IMG/VR virus record: IMGVR_UViG_3300021168_000041
Coordinates: 1 to 50,025 of that record
From: a virus
Strand: one strand, 5' to 3'
DNA: 50,025 nucleotides
Shown: piece by piece, positions 18,460 to 25,125 of the stretch
Layout: each line of letters starts with the position of its first letter
Position numbering within the stretch: position 1 is the stretch's first letter
Notes under the pieces: model-generated
What the model was told of the DNA's origin: nothing
Seen by the model: only the letters and a program-made list of their open reading frames with translations
Databases searched by the model: none
Position numbers and translations under genes: made by a program

Positions 18460-19068
18460 CTACTCGTAATCGTCGTCATCATCCTCGTCTTCGTCATCCT
18501 CATCCTCATCGTCGTCCTCTTCACCGACGACGGGCGCGCCATTAAGCGCGCAGCAGGCGGTGCCGAAGGTGCGAAAATCTCCCTTACCACAATACAACTC
18601 ACGTCCTCGACTGTCGGGCGCGACCGCCGCGGAAGCGTAGGGACAGCGGTGACAGCCAAAACCTTTGCCGTTCTCGGCTACGCCATAACCCGCGACTTCT
18701 GGACTCTTCTCGCGTAGAACCATCTCCGGGTCGCCAGCGCAAGTAATCTCCCAGTCGCCGCAGCTGCCTGCGTCGCGGTCAATAGTAGGGATCTTCACCA
18801 GCAGGCACTTGACGCCAACCGCCTGGTTGCATCGGCCGCAGTTGTAGTCGCCGCGATCATCGTAGGTTCGCGTGTTGCCGGTGAACATATCAGCGAACTT
18901 AAAGTGACCAGCAAACCTGTCACGGTTGTGCTGTTCGATCACCTCTCGCGCTGCGCTGGTATCTTTTGGCTGAATAAACAGCCCGTCTTTCCCGCGCTCT
19001 GGATTCGTCACCTCCCGAGTCGGCGGTTTCTTAACCGTCACGACCGGGATGCCAAGAAACTTGATCAT
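18460..19068 (-). CDS. Cys-rich protein with acidic tail, possible metal or Fe-S protein
   Basis: The 202-aa protein has ten cysteines (77, 80, 88, 103, 110, 139, 142, 160, 172, 173), including CxxC at 77-80 and 139-142, and a strongly acidic Asp/Glu tail from about 183 to the end. The cysteine layout suggests zinc or an iron-sulphur cluster. It overlaps the portal gene by four bases (ATGA at 19065-19068) and comes before scaffold, so it is made with head proteins. Its function is not known. The repetitive GAC/GAG/GAT tail is prone to slippage and length change. Confidence 0.65.
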   Translation of the reverse strand: MIKFLGIPVVTVKKPPTREVTNPERGKDGLFIQPKDTSAAREVIEQHNRDRFAGHFKFADMFTGNTRTYDDRGDYNCGRCNQAVGVKCLLVKIPTIDRDAGSCGDWEITCAGDPEMVLREKSPEVAGYGVAENGKGFGCHRCPYASAAVAPDSRGRELYCGKGDFRTFGTACCALNGAPVVGEEDDDEDEDDEDEDDDDDYE

Positions 19069-21524
19069 GCCGCCTTTTTCGCCTTCTTAGGCTTCGCGGC
19101 GGCTAGCGCCTTCGCAGCGGCGACCTTGGCGGCATTCAGCTCCTGCTGATGCTTGAGAGCCAGCGCGTGCTTCTGCTGCATACGCTGCATCTCGGCCTCA
19201 TGCGCGGAGGCGGCGCGCTGTTGTTCGGCCTCATGTTGCTGCTGGGCGCGCTGATGTTCAGCTTCGTAGGTACGCGAGGCGACAGCTTGATCCGCCAGAT
19301 GCTGGCGGGCGGCGTGCACAACGCCTTGAGTATGTTGCTGATCAGCGTGCGTCAGATCCTGTAGATTGCCGACATGCTTGGCAGCCAGGTCCATCTGCGC
19401 CGATTTCGCTTCAGTCTGACGGTCCTGCGCGTCGGCGCCAATCTCGTGCGCTAGTTTGATATTTGCTAGGTGCTTACCGGCAGTCTCAAACTGGACTTTC
19501 TGCTGCTCCGTTGAGCTTACCTGAGCGCGAGACTGAGCAATGGCTGCGTCCGCCGTCATCTTATCTGTCTTACCTTTCAGCAGAGACATCTCCAACTGCT
19601 GTTGCTGCTCCTGCATCTGTTGCGCCTGATTCTTCTGCGTGCCGACGCCGGCCGCTTTTTCCTTCTCAGTAGGCTGGATGATGCCCTGCTGTATCAGCGG
19701 GATCCGCAACCGGTTCGCCATCTCTTGCGCGTCAGGCGAGTCGATGTTCTTCGCGATCAGGTCGCTGATCATCGGCGCGTTCTGCGGCATCGCTTCAGCG
19801 AACGATATCAACGTATCGAGCGCTTCTTGGCGCGCGGACTGGAAGCTTGGGCCGATGGTGACTTCAACGTCATACGAACCCTGCGACAGATCGTTCATCA
19901 CGTCGCCGGTCAGGTCGTTCTCTTTGTTGATCTCGACCATCTTCTCGACGCCGTCGTGACCAATTATGCGCTCGACACGCGCCGAGTCATAGACGGATGG
20001 GATCATGTCGACAAACATTTCCCAAGTGAGCTGCAGCGCCGAGCTGAAGCCGTCAATGAATTCGAAGCTGCCCAGGTCCGAGCGCTTCGTGTGTTGCACG
20101 AGCGCTTTGCCTGAGACGCGGTTCATATCCTCAGCGTTGCCGAGAGCCGGATCAAAGTATCCAATGGTGGCCTGGATGTCTTGTATAGACATTTGGGCGA
20201 GGGCCATCGCACCCTGCGGCAGGTCGAGTGGCTGCGTGCGGAACGGCATGCCGCCTTCCGCGTTCTTGTCGACGTTGTACGGCAAGTACGGGCGCGAGGC
20301 GACGTTCGCCTGGTTCCACTCGTTCTCGTAGCCCTTGATCATCGCCTCAGTGACGAGGTACGGCGCCTTCGGCAGGAGCGCACTGCGCTCGATCATGTCC
20401 GAGGCGCGGGAGTTGTAGCTGCGCTGCGCGTCTTTGGAATGACGAATCAGCGACTGGAATTTCTTGCGGCCTTCGATGTTGATGTAACGACCGGGGCAGC
20501 GCACGACCGGAATTCTCTTCCAGTCATAATAGTACGGGCCTTCGAGCACGGTGGAGCCGTCGATCTTGGCCCACATGACCTGCCACTTCGTGGTCTTACG
20601 GATCATCGGTTTGCCGGTCTTCTTGTTCGTCGCGATGCGCGTGACACCACTCTTCTCGAACGTCAGACCGTGATCTTCGAGATGTTGTTCGGTGGCCTTG
20701 AGATCGGCGTCGTACTCGCGCACGGTGCCGTCGGTCATCTTCGCGATCCACTTCTCACGCGGCACGCGCTCGAAGTATTCGGCGATGCGAACTTCTTTGT
20801 CAGTGAACCAGCCGTAGCTGTCACGCGAGACATCGAAGCTGTTCATATTTCCGTCCGGGTACAGCGACTCGTAGATCTCGTCGGAGATGCGCTCCGCCAC
20901 GATGCAGCGGTTGGCGTCGGCCGCGCACGCGTCGGCGCACTGCGGATCCCACACGACGGTCTGCGGGTTCGAGATGTTGAGGACGCGCAGCACTTGGTCG
21001 AAGGCGCCTTCGCCGTCGTCTTGCATGTAGGTCGGCATGATGCGCCACGCACCAAAGCCGCCAGCGACGGCGAACTTGAATTGTTCTTTGTAGATCTGAT
21101 CAGCGCGACTGCACTGCTCGATGGAGCGGCACAGGCCGGCAAACACGTCTGAGATTGCCTCAGACGCGCCATCGGACGCGGGCCGCACCTTGCCGGCGGG
21201 GCGAGTCTGACGCATGTCGGCCACCACCATGTTCACTGGCTGCAAGCAGCGATTGAACGTGTAGCACGGCTTGCCGCGGCGATTTTGGAGCACGACGGGA
21301 TCCCACTGCCCCATCGCTTCGGCGTTGTAGATGAAGTTCAGATCTTCGGAGTGCATGCGACGATTCTCTTCCCACGCACCGACACCTTCGTCATAGAAGT
21401 TGCGGATGCGCGAGAGGAGACCTTCGTTGTCCTTGATCTGGAACCCAGGCGAGTCGGGGAGCGTGCCGCGTTGTCCCGGCACGTCCCCGATCAGATCCCA
21501 GTTATCGCCTGCGTTGCCGCTCAT
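19065..21524 (-). CDS. Portal protein, P22 gp1-like
   Basis: The 819-aa length is typical of the large P22-type portals (725 aa or more). It starts with an acidic N-terminus and contains LLSRIRNFYDEG, FIYNAEAMGQWDP, a core with RIPVVRCPGRYINIEG and RSYNSRASDMIERS, and a C-terminal run of nearly 150 residues of Gln/Ala-rich coiled coil (from about 640), matching the P22 portal barrel. Twelve copies would form the DNA entry ring. Its start overlaps the TAA of the upstream gene (TAATG). Confidence 0.88.
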   Translation of the reverse strand: MSGNAGDNWDLIGDVPGQRGTLPDSPGFQIKDNEGLLSRIRNFYDEGVGAWEENRRMHSEDLNFIYNAEAMGQWDPVVLQNRRGKPCYTFNRCLQPVNMVVADMRQTRPAGKVRPASDGASEAISDVFAGLCRSIEQCSRADQIYKEQFKFAVAGGFGAWRIMPTYMQDDGEGAFDQVLRVLNISNPQTVVWDPQCADACAADANRCIVAERISDEIYESLYPDGNMNSFDVSRDSYGWFTDKEVRIAEYFERVPREKWIAKMTDGTVREYDADLKATEQHLEDHGLTFEKSGVTRIATNKKTGKPMIRKTTKWQVMWAKIDGSTVLEGPYYYDWKRIPVVRCPGRYINIEGRKKFQSLIRHSKDAQRSYNSRASDMIERSALLPKAPYLVTEAMIKGYENEWNQANVASRPYLPYNVDKNAEGGMPFRTQPLDLPQGAMALAQMSIQDIQATIGYFDPALGNAEDMNRVSGKALVQHTKRSDLGSFEFIDGFSSALQLTWEMFVDMIPSVYDSARVERIIGHDGVEKMVEINKENDLTGDVMNDLSQGSYDVEVTIGPSFQSARQEALDTLISFAEAMPQNAPMISDLIAKNIDSPDAQEMANRLRIPLIQQGIIQPTEKEKAAGVGTQKNQAQQMQEQQQQLEMSLLKGKTDKMTADAAIAQSRAQVSSTEQQKVQFETAGKHLANIKLAHEIGADAQDRQTEAKSAQMDLAAKHVGNLQDLTHADQQHTQGVVHAARQHLADQAVASRTYEAEHQRAQQQHEAEQQRAASAHEAEMQRMQQKHALALKHQQELNAAKVAAAKALAAAKPKKAKKAA

Positions 21525-22042: not shown

Positions 22043-22819
22043 TTAACCACTCCACACTCCGCCTTGCGTCGCCATCTCAGGCACCCAGCTGAACCACGGC
22101 AAACCGCCATCGCTCGCGGGCGGCGCTTTCGCCACATCAAAACCGCTCATCACGTTGTAGCGCGAGGCGTCCATGAGGTGATCGTTTTTCTTGATTATGT
22201 TGCCTTTCTCATCGCGACGATATAGACGCACCTCTTTGAACCAATTCACGCAGGTGCTGAAGATGCGCAGCTGCTGCGTCGAAAGCATGTCCCAGGTCTG
22301 CACCAACCCGGTCACAACAGTGTTGTCGGCCTTGCTGACCTTTAGCCCGAGGTTGCAGTACGTGTCGATCAGCAATTCGCCATCGGTGCCGCGCGCTTTC
22401 TGCGCCGCAGGGTCTATCACGCCGTGAATCCACGGACCGCGCCGATTGATCGCTGCGACATGTACTGCAGGGTCGGCTTGACCGCGATAGTACTCGTCAT
22501 ACATCACCGCCGGGTACCGTTGGTTGCCGGCGGCGTCTTTGAATCCGTTGTCGATGTCCCAAGCGAACCAGCACACCGCGGTGCAGTTCCAGCCCGGGTC
22601 CATTCCGTACGAGCGCGGCCAGTGGGCCGGGATGTCGAACGGTTGAATCATCATCACGTTCTCGGGGATCGGGTAGATCGCGCCGACGCCGTGCCCGGGT
22701 ATGCCGGACTTACGTGCTTGGAGCTGCCACGCCGGCACGCTCGACAAGATTTTCTTTTTCTCCGATTCGGTCAAATGAGCGACATCGTCCATGTCTAAAA
22801 AAACGCATGATTTAGACAT
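22043..22819 (-). CDS. terL: Terminase large subunit, nuclease domain (separate ORF)
   Basis: The 258-aa ORF holds the RNase H-like nuclease half of a large terminase: DxG at Asp74 (YGMDPGWNCTA), VIDPAA with Asp136, and NDHLMD with Asp213 and Asp217, the usual metal ligands. Its N-terminus (LDMDDVAHLTESEKKKIL, GIPGHGVGAIYPIPE) matches the linker that joins ATPase and nuclease in intact terminases. It has its own ATG, an in-frame TAA directly upstream and a weak GGTGG ribosome site. With the 298-aa ATPase ORF the total of 556 aa equals one normal TerL, so this is a split or frameshifted terminase. Confidence 0.88.
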   Translation of the reverse strand: MSKSCVFLDMDDVAHLTESEKKKILSSVPAWQLQARKSGIPGHGVGAIYPIPENVMMIQPFDIPAHWPRSYGMDPGWNCTAVCWFAWDIDNGFKDAAGNQRYPAVMYDEYYRGQADPAVHVAAINRRGPWIHGVIDPAAQKARGTDGELLIDTYCNLGLKVSKADNTVVTGLVQTWDMLSTQQLRIFSTCVNWFKEVRLYRRDEKGNIIKKNDHLMDASRYNVMSGFDVAKAPPASDGGLPWFSWVPEMATQGGVWSG

Positions 22820-22859
22820 TTACGCCACCGCGAAGCTGTGTTTCTTTTACCTCACTCAT
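22812..22859 (-). CDS. 15-codon linking frame between the terminase halves
   Basis: An ATG at 22859 opens 15 codons (MSEVKETQ...) in the third frame and ends with TAA at 22814-22812. It has a strong GGAAGAGGAG site upstream. Its ATG lies five bases before the ATPase stop, and its own stop lies just after the nuclease ATG, with matching ATGAGTGA and ATGTCTAA arrangements. It may carry ribosomes from one half to the other, or it may be the remnant of the original interdomain linker. Confidence 0.35.
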   Translation of the reverse strand: MSEVKETQLRGGVNV

Positions 22860-23748
22860 CGACGACCGTCTCCTCTTCCAGCTCCCACTGCTCAGTCGGC
22901 ATCGCGTCTGGCTCGGGCGACAGCTCGGGCATGAACGTGATCATCAGGTCCGATACGCCCAACAGCGGCGTCTCTGTCAGCACCAGCGTGCCGTTCACTT
23001 CGCCGGGCACCGTGCTCATGAGCCGCATGCCGCACTCGGCGTAAATTTCCAGCTTCGGCTCTTCGTCGAGGTGGATCCTGTCCTGGCGCGTGCCTTGGAA
23101 GGCTTCGCGGCCCTGATCGTACGACTTAAACTGCAGCGTAGAGATGCCGCCGGACACGTGACGCACAAAAACCGACTCGAACGCATCGGCGAGACCGTGT
23201 TTCACCGTCCGCCGCACCAAAAGGTCGCCAGGAATCATCCCGGTGCCGTACGCGGACTCAACGCCGGGCTTACCGCACATCTTTTCTTGTAAAATGTCGC
23301 GCGTGTTCTTCGCGGTATCGGTCGCCAACCACATATCGATGGGTCGGTCGTATCTTCGTCCCGGCCACCAGTCAGGGTACAGCCCGGTAAGGTGCAGCGC
23401 GTCCGCAAAACAGCCGCAGTGCGTCTTACCCGTTCTGTTTCCACCGAAAAGTGCAATTTCATCGTCCTTCGCTTCTGAGGCGAAGAACTGCATCTGCTTC
23501 GGATAGTGCGCCCGACCGAGCGGGCAGTTCTTTAGCGCCGGGTGGTCAATCGGATCCTGAAACCAGGTCACTATTTGGGTCTGATCCTGGATTTTCGCTC
23601 GCTGGCTCAGGATCTGGATCAGTTTCGTGGTCTCTGCCAGACTCAACGAGCTGATATTCTGCTTCGATAACAGACTCGTCAGCTGTGTCGGCAGCGGCGA
23701 GTAAACCCTGTCGATTAAATCTCGATAGGATTGTGGAAAGTTGCGCAT
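22852..23748 (-). CDS. terL: Terminase large subunit, ATPase domain (separate ORF)
   Basis: The 298-aa ORF carries the packaging ATPase: a glutamine-type adenine motif (HYPKQMQFF at 82-90), Walker A GGNRTGKT at 102-109, Walker B RIHLDEEP at 224-231 (Asp228, Glu229) and coupling motif TLVLTETPLLG (about 254-264). It ends in an acidic tail instead of running into the nuclease domain. The ATG at 23748 overlaps the small terminase by 203 bases. A shorter start (a TTG near residue 35 or GTG at 23571) would reduce the overlap, but the helix at 36-60 looks like a genuine TerL N-terminus. Confidence 0.88.
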   Translation of the reverse strand: MRNFPQSYRDLIDRVYSPLPTQLTSLLSKQNISSLSLAETTKLIQILSQRAKIQDQTQIVTWFQDPIDHPALKNCPLGRAHYPKQMQFFASEAKDDEIALFGGNRTGKTHCGCFADALHLTGLYPDWWPGRRYDRPIDMWLATDTAKNTRDILQEKMCGKPGVESAYGTGMIPGDLLVRRTVKHGLADAFESVFVRHVSGGISTLQFKSYDQGREAFQGTRQDRIHLDEEPKLEIYAECGMRLMSTVPGEVNGTLVLTETPLLGVSDLMITFMPELSPEPDAMPTEQWELEEETVVDE

Positions 23749-24586
23749 GGGCCTGGTCCAACGTTAGGTTTTGCTTCACGTTGAGATCCATTTTTAGGTT
23801 CTCACCGAATTTTTCAGGAAAAAGGTTCGCAGCGATGCGCCCGAGCATCTTGGCATCGCCCTTTACAGCTGACGCGGAGGCTGCGTGGTCAAAAACGCTG
23901 CGCGCGATCTGATGCGCGTCATCAAACCCTCTCTGAAAATCCGAATTTGCCGACAGCTCCTTGTGGAACTGTACGTTCGTGGCGCCGACTGAGCGTAGCG
24001 CCTGCTTCACGTCGGCGGTGTTCGCGTACGTGATCAGGAAAACTCGCTGCTTATCATCCGTCCAATCGAATTCGTCCGTCACCTGCTGCGTGCGGGCAAT
24101 GCCCATACTCTCTTCGAGCCGGTTCACCGCCTCGCGGAACGTCGTGTTCCAACTGAGTATCGCCAAAAACTCTGACTCGGTGCGCCCGAGCGCTTCGGCA
24201 GCGAGCGTGAAGTCTTTCAGCTCCGCGTACTTCTCAAGAAATTTCTTCTCGGCGGTGCTCGGCTGCGCCGGACCTGCCGGCGCGGTGTTTTTCTGCGTGT
24301 AGTTGCGCCTGCGCGCTTCTTCCAGCTCCGGTACGCCTTTACCGTACACCGGAACCAAACCTTTCTCGACGCGTTGGCAGTCGACGCAGATGCTGCTGTT
24401 CGCTACGTAGCGAGCGGCGCGGTGACCGGTGACGCATACGGCACCGGTCCAAAAGTGTTTCCAGCCGCGCGCCTTCGCCTCTTCAAGAGAGACGAAGCGC
24501 GTCGGCTGGTAATTGTACATGTCCGGCCGGCCGTCACGCAGTGGCGCAACGGTCTCGGGCCGGATCTTCGGCCACTTGTCACTCAT
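23546..24586 (-). CDS. terS: Terminase small subunit candidate with N-terminal zinc module
   Basis: From the ATG at 24586, which overlaps the upstream stop as ATGA, it encodes 346 aa; the frame is open to 24664. Residues 45-75 form a Cys/His module (Cys51, His55, Cys67, Cys70) very like that of the HNH enzyme at 14299-14817. The middle (about 105-285) is helical with LAAEALGRTESEFLAIL and LKMDLNVKQNLTLDQ, as in small terminases that bind pac or cos DNA. The C-terminus is an acidic Asp/Pro/Ser tail. The small-terminase call rests on position and helical pattern. Confidence 0.65.
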   Translation of the reverse strand: MSDKWPKIRPETVAPLRDGRPDMYNYQPTRFVSLEEAKARGWKHFWTGAVCVTGHRAARYVANSSICVDCQRVEKGLVPVYGKGVPELEEARRRNYTQKNTAPAGPAQPSTAEKKFLEKYAELKDFTLAAEALGRTESEFLAILSWNTTFREAVNRLEESMGIARTQQVTDEFDWTDDKQRVFLITYANTADVKQALRSVGATNVQFHKELSANSDFQRGFDDAHQIARSVFDHAASASAVKGDAKMLGRIAANLFPEKFGENLKMDLNVKQNLTLDQAHAQLSTILSRFNRQGLLAAADTADESVIEAEYQLVESGRDHETDPDPEPASENPGSDPNSDLVSGSD

Positions 24587-25125
24587 GCGCGGTGCCAATC
24601 CTCCGAACCGCTCATGAAATTTCCCTTCCTGTCGTAGCCGGCGCTCTGCTGCCACATCAGGCACTCGTTCAGTGACTCGTCGGGGTCTACGGAGTAGATC
24701 GCTTTCTGCCAGACGAACGCGAGATCGCCGATGCCAGGAAATCCTACGCGGTCGAAGTCAACGAGCGTGGTGTTGCGGAAACTGAATTCCACCACATCGC
24801 CAGGCTTTACCTGCATCGGAATAATTTGTCCGGTCTCAGCACCATCCTCGAACCACAGCGTGCGACCCGAGAGTTTACTGGGCGCGAACTGCATGATCTT
24901 GCCGTCCGGCCCGAGCACAGGTGGCCCATCGCTGATGGATTGCTGAAACGCCACTTTGCGCCGCTGGCGGCGGCCGTAGCCAACACCAACAACCACCCCT
25001 TTATGAATTTCCACCCCCGGCGTGAGTAAAGTAGGATGGACGTACGGTAAAACCTTCACCAAAACCCGGTCGCGTAACACGCGCACGCGCTTGCCGATTT
25101 CTTCCAGCTCTTCTGTGAGCATCAT
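24583..25125 (-). CDS. GroES-like co-chaperonin homologue (long form)
   Basis: The 180-aa protein contains a GroES-type pattern: VRVLRDRVLVKVLP at 14-27, a loop with GVEIHKGVVVGVG, then VKPGDVVEFSF and a terminal beta strand before WQKAIYSVDPDE. A central insertion and a C-terminal extension (about 150-180) lengthen it beyond the usual 95-100 aa. GroES-like phage proteins (T4 gp31 is the classic case) cap host GroEL and help coat folding. It overlaps the second GroES-like gene by four bases and the small terminase by four. Confidence 0.72.
   Translation of the reverse strand: MMLTEELEEIGKRVRVLRDRVLVKVLPYVHPTLLTPGVEIHKGVVVGVGYGRRQRRKVAFQQSISDGPPVLGPDGKIMQFAPSKLSGRTLWFEDGAETGQIIPMQVKPGDVVEFSFRNTTLVDFDRVGFPGIGDLAFVWQKAIYSVDPDESLNECLMWQQSAGYDRKGNFMSGSEDWHRA

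What the first reader, a model, noticed from the sequence alone, without database searches (positions are those of the whole stretch)
22043..23748. Large terminase split into two ORFs through a 15-codon linking frame
The ATPase half (298 aa) and nuclease half (258 aa) together equal one normal TerL, but they lie in different frames and are joined by a third frame of 15 codons. The arrangement of starts and stops is the same at both junctions, with a strong ribosome site only at the first. This is either a genuine split motor, programmed re-initiation, or a double frameshift from sequencing or mutation.
Basis: partly seen in the sequence, partly recalled or inferred. Interest (0 to 1): 0.78.

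Follow-up and report, generated by a model that had tools for sequence, protein, structure and literature searches.

The report
Phage packaging motor encoded in two
The motor protein that pumps DNA into this phage's capsid is made as two separate proteins instead of one, many relatives share the same split, and the tiny gene between the two halves here is the leftover of a selfish DNA-cutting gene that recurs at that spot.

Summary
The split is genuine, not an error or a frameshift. All 56 close contigs examined, from many metagenomes, are split at the same loop, with spacing from a 32-nt overlap to 518 nt and all three frame relations. Both halves are under purifying selection (median dN/dS 0.13 and 0.10), and no portal gene in split loci is broken. 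The 15-codon ORF is a deletion scar: relative L001 has a 166-codon HNH endonuclease ORF there, and the window lacks 461 internal bases across a 2-nt microhomology. HNH and endonuclease VII genes have entered and decayed at this junction, with a homing-like identity gradient. The same split occurs in 45-70% relatives and in prophages of cultured bacteria, interspersed with intact TerLs (10 state changes on the tree; a single origin is not rejected, AU p = 0.23). AlphaFold suggests that the first segment of the nuclease half orders only with the ATPase half. Best reading: a stable genes-in-pieces terminase translated by coupled re-initiation. Its function as a two-chain motor is inferred, not shown.

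The parts
22852..23748 (-). terL-N: ATPase half, 298 aa, ends ...EEETVVDE*
   Evidence: Pfam Terminase_6N E 1.5e-8; PHROG terminase; median dN/dS 0.133 in clade
23422..23445 (-). Walker A GGNRTGKT (residues 102-109); interrupted by an intein in relatives L026 and L032
   Evidence: sequence; near-invariant N104 R105 G107 K108 in A4; intein
22870..22874 (-). AGGAG ribosome-binding-like site inside the acidic-tail codons of the ATPase half, 10 nt before the next ATG
   Evidence: sequence; AGGAG-like stretches in the same place in most relatives
22852..22859 (-). junction 1: ATGAGTGA, start of linking ORF overlaps stop of ATPase half
22812..22859 (-). 15-codon linking ORF MSEVKETQLRGGVNV* = deletion scar of an HNH endonuclease ORF
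   Evidence: first 15 nt and last 38 nt (through nuclease start) identical to the ends of the L001 HNH ORF; 461 nt missing, 2-nt microhomology
22845..22846 (-). deletion junction (2-nt microhomology AA)
22812..22819 (-). junction 2: ATGTCTAA, start of nuclease half overlaps stop of linking ORF
22043..22819 (-). terL-C: nuclease half, 258 aa, begins MSKSCVFLDMDDVAHL
   Evidence: Pfam Terminase_6C E 8e-7; PDB 4dkw P22 TerL nuclease domain E 3e-36 by family profile; median dN/dS 0.099
22796..22813 (-). codons for residues 3-8 of the nuclease half (KSCVFL): strand in the joined model of L096, disordered when the window nuclease half is modelled alone
   Evidence: AlphaFold models
23546..24664 (-). 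upstream ORF, terminase-small-subunit position; overlaps terL-N by 203 nt
   Evidence: overlap of 200-212 nt in 35 relatives' loci; function by position only
19065..21524 (-). portal gene (P22-like), intact; used as control
   Evidence: Pfam P22_portal E 1.4e-146; control

Best explanation
The large terminase of this phage is encoded as two genes. terL-N makes the ATPase core up to motif III and ends in an acidic tail. terL-C makes the next beta-strand, the linker helices and the RNase H-like nuclease. The split lies in an unconserved loop of intact TerLs. The halves are probably translated from one message by termination/re-initiation at overlapping stop and start codons, and probably assemble non-covalently into a working TerL, with the first segment of terL-C pairing with the ATPase domain. 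The junction is a repeated target of free-standing homing-type endonuclease genes (HNH, endonuclease VII), which sit between the halves and decay by deletion. The window's 15-codon ORF is such a scar: its two ends match the two ends of a 166-codon HNH gene in a close relative. SHOWN by sequence: the split, its conservation, purifying selection, the scar, the endonuclease alleles and the identity gradient around them. INFERRED: re-initiation, non-covalent assembly, packaging activity, and that an endonuclease caused the original split.
For: Same split in all 56 close contigs, all three frame relations, spacing -32 to +518 nt. Exact scar; other scars L026, L031 (HNH) and L029, L047/L048, L100 (endonuclease VII). 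HNH of L017 and L095 99.2% identical while flanks fall to 78-81%. dN/dS about 0.1 in both halves. No Rfam intron in window or L001, while a real terL group I intron is detected in Proteus phage 3H10_20. Same split in ct2G2228 with a 46-codon linking ORF and in prophages of cultured bacteria. Joined chain modelled as a TerL (pLDDT 85.4; Foldseek 5oeb E 1e-17); the segment is ordered in the joined model (pLDDT about 88) and disordered in the nuclease half alone (block mean 38).
Against: No protein, RNA or packaging data. The joined model is a tethered pseudo-fusion and its alignment includes intact TerLs, so it may copy their internal contacts; strand pairing was not inspected in coordinates. 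The two models are of different proteins (L096 joined, window half). HNH type A matches Pfam only weakly (E 0.015). Most split loci have no endonuclease remnant, so the cause of the original split is not demonstrated. Number of origins unresolved (AU p 0.23).
Confidence: 0.82

Rival explanations
1. Sequencing or assembly indels, or a broken gene in one isolate.
For: Metagenomic contig; two frame changes within 50 bases.
Against: 56 close contigs from many metagenomes are split at the same loop with different spacers; also cultured-host assemblies. dN/dS about 0.1. No portal gene in the split loci is broken.
Confidence: 0.02
2. Programmed frameshifting or ribosome hopping makes one fused TerL.
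For: Overlapping stop/start codons; T4 gene 60 is a known hop near a mobile-element scar (own knowledge).
Against: All three frame relations occur (30/28/7 of 65) and spacing runs from -32 to 1801 nt; whole endonuclease genes sit between the halves. No single mechanism gives one product from all of these.
Confidence: 0.04
3. A self-splicing intron or an intein joins the halves at RNA or protein level.
For: terL introns and inteins are known (PMC3322345, PMC5618024, PMC11878797); a mini-intein sits at Walker A in L026/L032.
Against: No Rfam intron at the junction in window or L001, although the method finds the group I intron in Proteus phage 3H10_20. Insert-free alleles have overlapping ORFs. 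No intein features at the junction.
Confidence: 0.03
4. The junction is an old natural gene boundary (fission by ordinary mutation, long ago), and endonucleases only later used it as a landing site.
For: Most split loci carry no endonuclease; the split spans deep clades; one origin is not rejected; some spacers hold other cargo such as Tad2-like or beta-helix proteins.
Against: Several endonuclease types sit exactly at the junction in different lineages, and many junctions without one could be fully decayed. Compatible with the best explanation except for the original cause.
Confidence: 0.4
5. The HNH between the halves is a packaging accessory like the HNH of HK97 rather than a selfish gene.
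For: HNH next to terminase acts in packaging in HK97 (discussed in PMC10448857).
Against: Most relatives, the window included, lack a whole endonuclease ORF; two unrelated families interchange; homing-like identity gradient.
Confidence: 0.08

Closest known systems
Genes-in-pieces NrdA of Aeromonas phage Aeh1 (mobE insertion) and T4 topoisomerase genes 60/39 (mobA)
   Same: An essential enzyme is split into two ORFs around an HNH homing endonuclease gene, without splicing; the two chains must reassemble (PMC2988022, citing Friedrich 2007)
   Different: Different enzyme (DNA packaging motor); here the split is shared by a deep, diverse set of phages and prophages, most have no endonuclease, and several endonuclease families and scars occur at one site
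Split DNA polymerase 43A/43B of Aeromonas phage 25 and split DNAP of OM43 phages MEP401/402
   Same: Two ORFs for one polymerase; in phages 25 and 44RR it is unclear whether the endonuclease made the split or entered it later (PMC2988022); small ORF between halves in MEP401/402 (PMC10580990)
   Different: Polymerase, not terminase
terL genes with group I introns or inteins (Twort-like, ICP1, IBB_35, Bastillevirinae, Mic1; Proteus phage 3H10_20 found here)
   Same: terL interrupted by endonuclease-bearing elements
   Different: Those are spliced back to one protein (splicing shown for ICP1 and SIOphi, predicted for others); no intron or intein here and a different site (3H10_20 is interrupted at Walker B)
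P22/Sf6-type TerL (Pfam Terminase_6N/6C; PDB 4dkw, 5oe8, 3cpe)
   Same: Sequence motifs, domain order, neighbouring P22-type portal
   Different: One polypeptide in those; two here

Membership tests
TerL, Terminase_6 type | ATPase domain with Walker A/B and motif III | tested here: met
   Terminase_6N E 1.5e-8; GGNRTGKT, LDEEP, TETP present and near-invariant
TerL, Terminase_6 type | RNase H-like nuclease domain with conserved acids | tested here: met
   Terminase_6C E 8e-7; D74, D136, D213, D217 invariant in 34 nuclease halves; 4dkw E 3e-36 by profile
TerL, Terminase_6 type | ATPase and nuclease on one polypeptide | tested here: not met
Genes-in-pieces by homing endonuclease (Aeh1 NrdA type) | gene continuous in relatives | tested here: met
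   continuous TerL in L038-L043, L067, L068, L070-L072 and others at about 45% identity
Genes-in-pieces by homing endonuclease (Aeh1 NrdA type) | endonuclease ORF between the halves | tested here: inconclusive
   window: only a scar; whole ORF in L001, L017, L025, L095 (HNH) and L002, L003, L004, L012 (endonuclease VII)
Genes-in-pieces by homing endonuclease (Aeh1 NrdA type) | no splicing element | tested here: met
   no Rfam match in window, L001 or 19 other loci; positive control detected
Genes-in-pieces by homing endonuclease (Aeh1 NrdA type) | endonuclease is mobile | tested here: inconclusive
   identity gradient centred on the insert, L017 vs L095; activity not tested
Genes-in-pieces by homing endonuclease (Aeh1 NrdA type) | halves assemble into an active enzyme | not testable with these tools
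   AlphaFold models are suggestive only
Group I intron-interrupted terL | group I intron at the junction | tested here: not met
Programmed frameshift gene | constant frame relation and overlap at the junction | tested here: not met
   frames 30/28/7 and distances -32 to 1801 in 65 loci

The most novel reading that the evidence does not exclude
In a large part of the P22-like TerL family the DNA-packaging motor is permanently a two-chain machine: ATPase and nuclease are separate gene products held together by strand pairing, arising more than once at one permissive loop through invasion by homing endonucleases, and the gap then serves as a landing site for further genes, including an anti-defence gene.
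Probability: 0.45. Interest if true: 0.85.

Novelty: new variant of a known kind. Interest (0 to 1): 0.72.

Why it matters
How the packaging ATPase and the cutting nuclease are coordinated within TerL is a central question for viral DNA motors. A natural system in which the two are separate proteins would allow mixing, omission and titration of each, and prophages in culturable bacteria (Sphingomonas, Azospirillum, Kushneria and others) offer experimental entry. It also extends genes-in-pieces from phage NrdA, topoisomerase and DNA polymerase to the packaging motor, and shows gain and decay of endonucleases at one site with alleles side by side. Practically, annotation and TerL-based trees that expect one ORF will mis-call these genes. 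Ten searches of a 5.4-million-paper open library found no report of a non-spliced split TerL; subscription papers are not covered.

Tried and rejected
Sequencing error, frameshift, intron and intein were each tested and rejected (see rivals). A strong common ribosome site for the second half was not found: only 28% of 65 nuclease starts have 5 or more bases matching the anti-SD in -20..-4, against 7% at random positions, which fits coupling rather than independent initiation but does not prove it. A test that all split TerLs form one clade gave AU p 0.23, so several independent origins could not be shown although the tree needs 10 changes and starred branches force 4. NCBIfam gave no useful names. 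An early reading of the PDB match 5oe8 as a Thermus phage TerL was wrong; it is phage D6E. The frequency of split TerLs was not estimated, because loci were collected by similarity to the split query and some contigs appear more than once.

Full report
What is there. The finding lies on the minus strand. The ATPase ORF runs 23748..22852 (298 aa, Pfam Terminase_6N) and the nuclease ORF 22819..22043 (258 aa, Terminase_6C). Between them lies a 15-codon ORF, 22859..22812, MSEVKETQLRGGVNV*, in the third frame. Its start overlaps the ATPase stop (ATGAGTGA) and its stop overlaps the nuclease start (ATGTCTAA). An AGGAG stretch sits 10 nt before the first ATG, inside the codons of the acidic tail of the ATPase half; only GGTGG precedes the second. 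The neighbours are a P22-like portal, scaffold and major head protein, so this is the packaging module of a tailed, probably podovirus-like phage. The window is itself an IMG/VR record of 50,025 bases.

The split is real and conserved. Two scans of IMG/VR with the two halves returned loci at 78-100% identity. In every close relative where the junction could be read, the ATPase half ends after an acidic tail and the nuclease half begins with a short start segment followed by [AC][VI]FLDM.DV (L007 alone departs slightly from this motif). One search lists 56 such contigs at 81-100% nuclease identity, some of them near-identical. The distance from stop to start runs from -32 to +518 nt in this clade, and the frame relation takes all three values. 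In 65 non-redundant split loci of the wider family the distances run from -32 to 1801 nt with frames 30/28/7, and -1 (ATGA) is the commonest value. Median dN/dS is 0.133 for the ATPase half, 0.248 for its tail alone, and 0.099 for the nuclease half. Of 95 split loci with a portal match, 81 have a single ORF of at least 500 aa and none of the rest is short without being cut by the end of the locus. Sequencing error, a defective isolate and a frameshift site are therefore excluded as general explanations.

What the 15 codons are. The relative L001 (ATPase half 99.7%, nuclease half 98.5% identical) has a 166-codon ORF in the gap that begins MSEVK, with the same first 15 bases, and ends with the same last bases before the same nuclease start. 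The window differs by a 461-base deletion inside that ORF, at 22845/22846, with two bases of microhomology. The ORF has an HNH-like C-terminus (VDHIIPLQG...VPENLRLLSKSEN; Pfam HNH E 0.015, below its cut-off), and its relatives in other phages include an annotated HNH endonuclease. L017, L025 and L095 carry versions of the same ORF. L002, L003, L004 and L012 carry a different gene at the same place, matching Pfam Endonuclease_7 at E 6e-13 and 8.5e-13 in the two tested. L026 and L031 look like other scars of the HNH type, and L029, L047/L048 and L100 of the endonuclease VII type. L017 and L095 share an HNH region that is 99.2% identical, while the flanking ATPase and nuclease DNA falls from 94% next to it to 78-81% farther away. 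The scar L031 shows the same gradient against L025. This is the pattern expected from homing with co-conversion; it is not proof of endonuclease activity.

How far the split extends. A profile scan of IMG/VR, a scan of GTDB genomes and GenBank phages were classified by whether ATPase and nuclease share one open frame. Among all loci fetched (with some contigs repeated) 148 are split, 64 intact and 12 undetermined. Split loci include prophage-like regions in assemblies of Azospirillum, Sphingomonas, Phenylobacterium, Kushneria, Chromohalobacter, Acetobacter, Sphingopyxis, Novosphingobium, Aminobacter, Fulvimarina, Metarhizobium and Roseomonas. The circular metagenomic phage ct2G2228 (MW202785.1) has the same plan: ATPase ORF, a 46-codon linking ORF, nuclease ORF, with overlaps at both ends; GenBank calls both outer ORFs large terminase protein. 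Its linking ORF resembles the AP2-like tail of HNH homing endonucleases by eye; Pfam gave no match. Other spacers contain an HNH_3+AP2 gene (L142), HNH genes (L185, L207), an HNH-like gene recognised by eye only (L129), a Tad2-like gene (L165) and a beta-helix protein (L166). In intact TerLs the split point corresponds to an unconserved loop between the motif III strand (TFTP) and the next strand (VVMATWDDVPHL).

Origins. On a tree of 122 non-redundant TerLs (66 split, 56 intact) the label changes 10 times and starred branches force at least 4; all 26 rows of the window's deep clade are split (98*). A test that forces all split TerLs into one clade is not rejected (p-AU 0.232). Several splits, or one split with re-fusions, both remain possible. 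The sample was drawn by similarity to a split query, so the proportion of split loci is not a frequency estimate.

Splicing. Rfam finds nothing in the window, in L001 around the junction at a permissive threshold, or in 19 other split loci at gathering thresholds. As a positive control, the search for HNH relatives uncovered Proteus phage 3H10_20, whose annotated terL is in two pieces around an HNH; there Rfam finds a group I intron (E 3.6e-18) and the break is at Walker B, a different site. In L026 and L032 the ATPase half itself carries an in-frame mini-intein at Walker A.

Likely working. The window's two halves lie in different frames, so the relative L096, whose halves are in one frame with a single TAA between them, was read with that codon as Gly, for folding only. 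With 44 rows the joined chain models at mean pLDDT 85.4. Residues 283-306 (acidic tail) are disordered, and residues 310-315, the first residues of the nuclease half, form a confident strand. Foldseek places the model with TerLs of phage D6E, T4 and HK97 and with the P22 nuclease domain. The window's nuclease half modelled alone has its first nine residues disordered (block mean 38) and no strand there. The simplest reading is that this segment completes the ATPase domain of the partner chain. The caveats are serious: the joined chain is tethered, the alignment includes intact TerLs, the two models are of different proteins, and contacts were not inspected. Profile alignment to D6E TerL begins at the same strand (residue 194), placing the split before the last part of the ATPase domain rather than at the domain boundary. 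Translation of the second half by re-initiation is inferred from the start/stop overlaps; only 28% of starts have a clear SD-like site against 7% by chance.

Comparison with the known. Splitting of an essential phage gene by a free-standing homing endonuclease is known for NrdA of Aeh1 (mobE) and the T4 topoisomerase (mobA), and the polymerase of phage 25 is a similar case in which cause and effect are uncertain; the Aeh1 enzyme is fully active and the polymerase halves co-purify with activity (PMC2988022). terL genes interrupted by introns or inteins are known (PMC3322345, PMC5618024, PMC11878797, PMC10448857, PMC7156551) but are spliced, or predicted to be spliced, back to one protein. I found no report of a TerL that stays in two pieces; the library lacks most subscription papers. 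The case is therefore filed as a new variant of a known kind.

Verdict. Observation confirmed. The interpretation 'genuine split motor' is supported at sequence level and functionally plausible but unproven; the 15-codon frame is explained as an endonuclease scar. Interest 0.72.

Noticed in passing
23546-23748 (minus strand): The ORF in the small-terminase position overlaps the ATPase ORF by 203 nt in another frame; an overlap of 200-212 nt is kept in 35 relatives' loci, so both frames appear to be coding.
   Followed up: partly
L026:3273-4946, L032:1552-3267: In-frame mini-intein inserted in Walker A (GGNR|C...HHN|TGKT) of the ATPase half.
   Followed up: partly
L165, between the TerL halves: A Tad2-like (Thoeris anti-defence) gene lies between the two TerL genes of an Azospirillum agricola prophage (Pfam E 4.6e-23).
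   Followed up: no
L225:1-2212 (Proteus phage 3H10_20; also vB_PMG_YP1, L227): terL annotated in two pieces around an HNH gene; in 3H10_20 a group I intron is detected (Rfam E 3.6e-18) at the Walker B site.
   Followed up: yes
L004:1359-1911: After an endonuclease VII gene the start of the nuclease gene and the end of the ATPase tail are repeated before the full nuclease gene, as if an inserted and an insert-free allele had recombined.
   Followed up: no
L157: A contig of the window's split clade (87% nuclease identity) is binned in a Solirubrobacterales MAG from a bog; weak hint at a host.
   Followed up: no
L069:2864-3004: 46-codon linking ORF of ct2G2228 resembles the AP2-like tail of HNH homing endonucleases by eye; no Pfam match.
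   Followed up: partly
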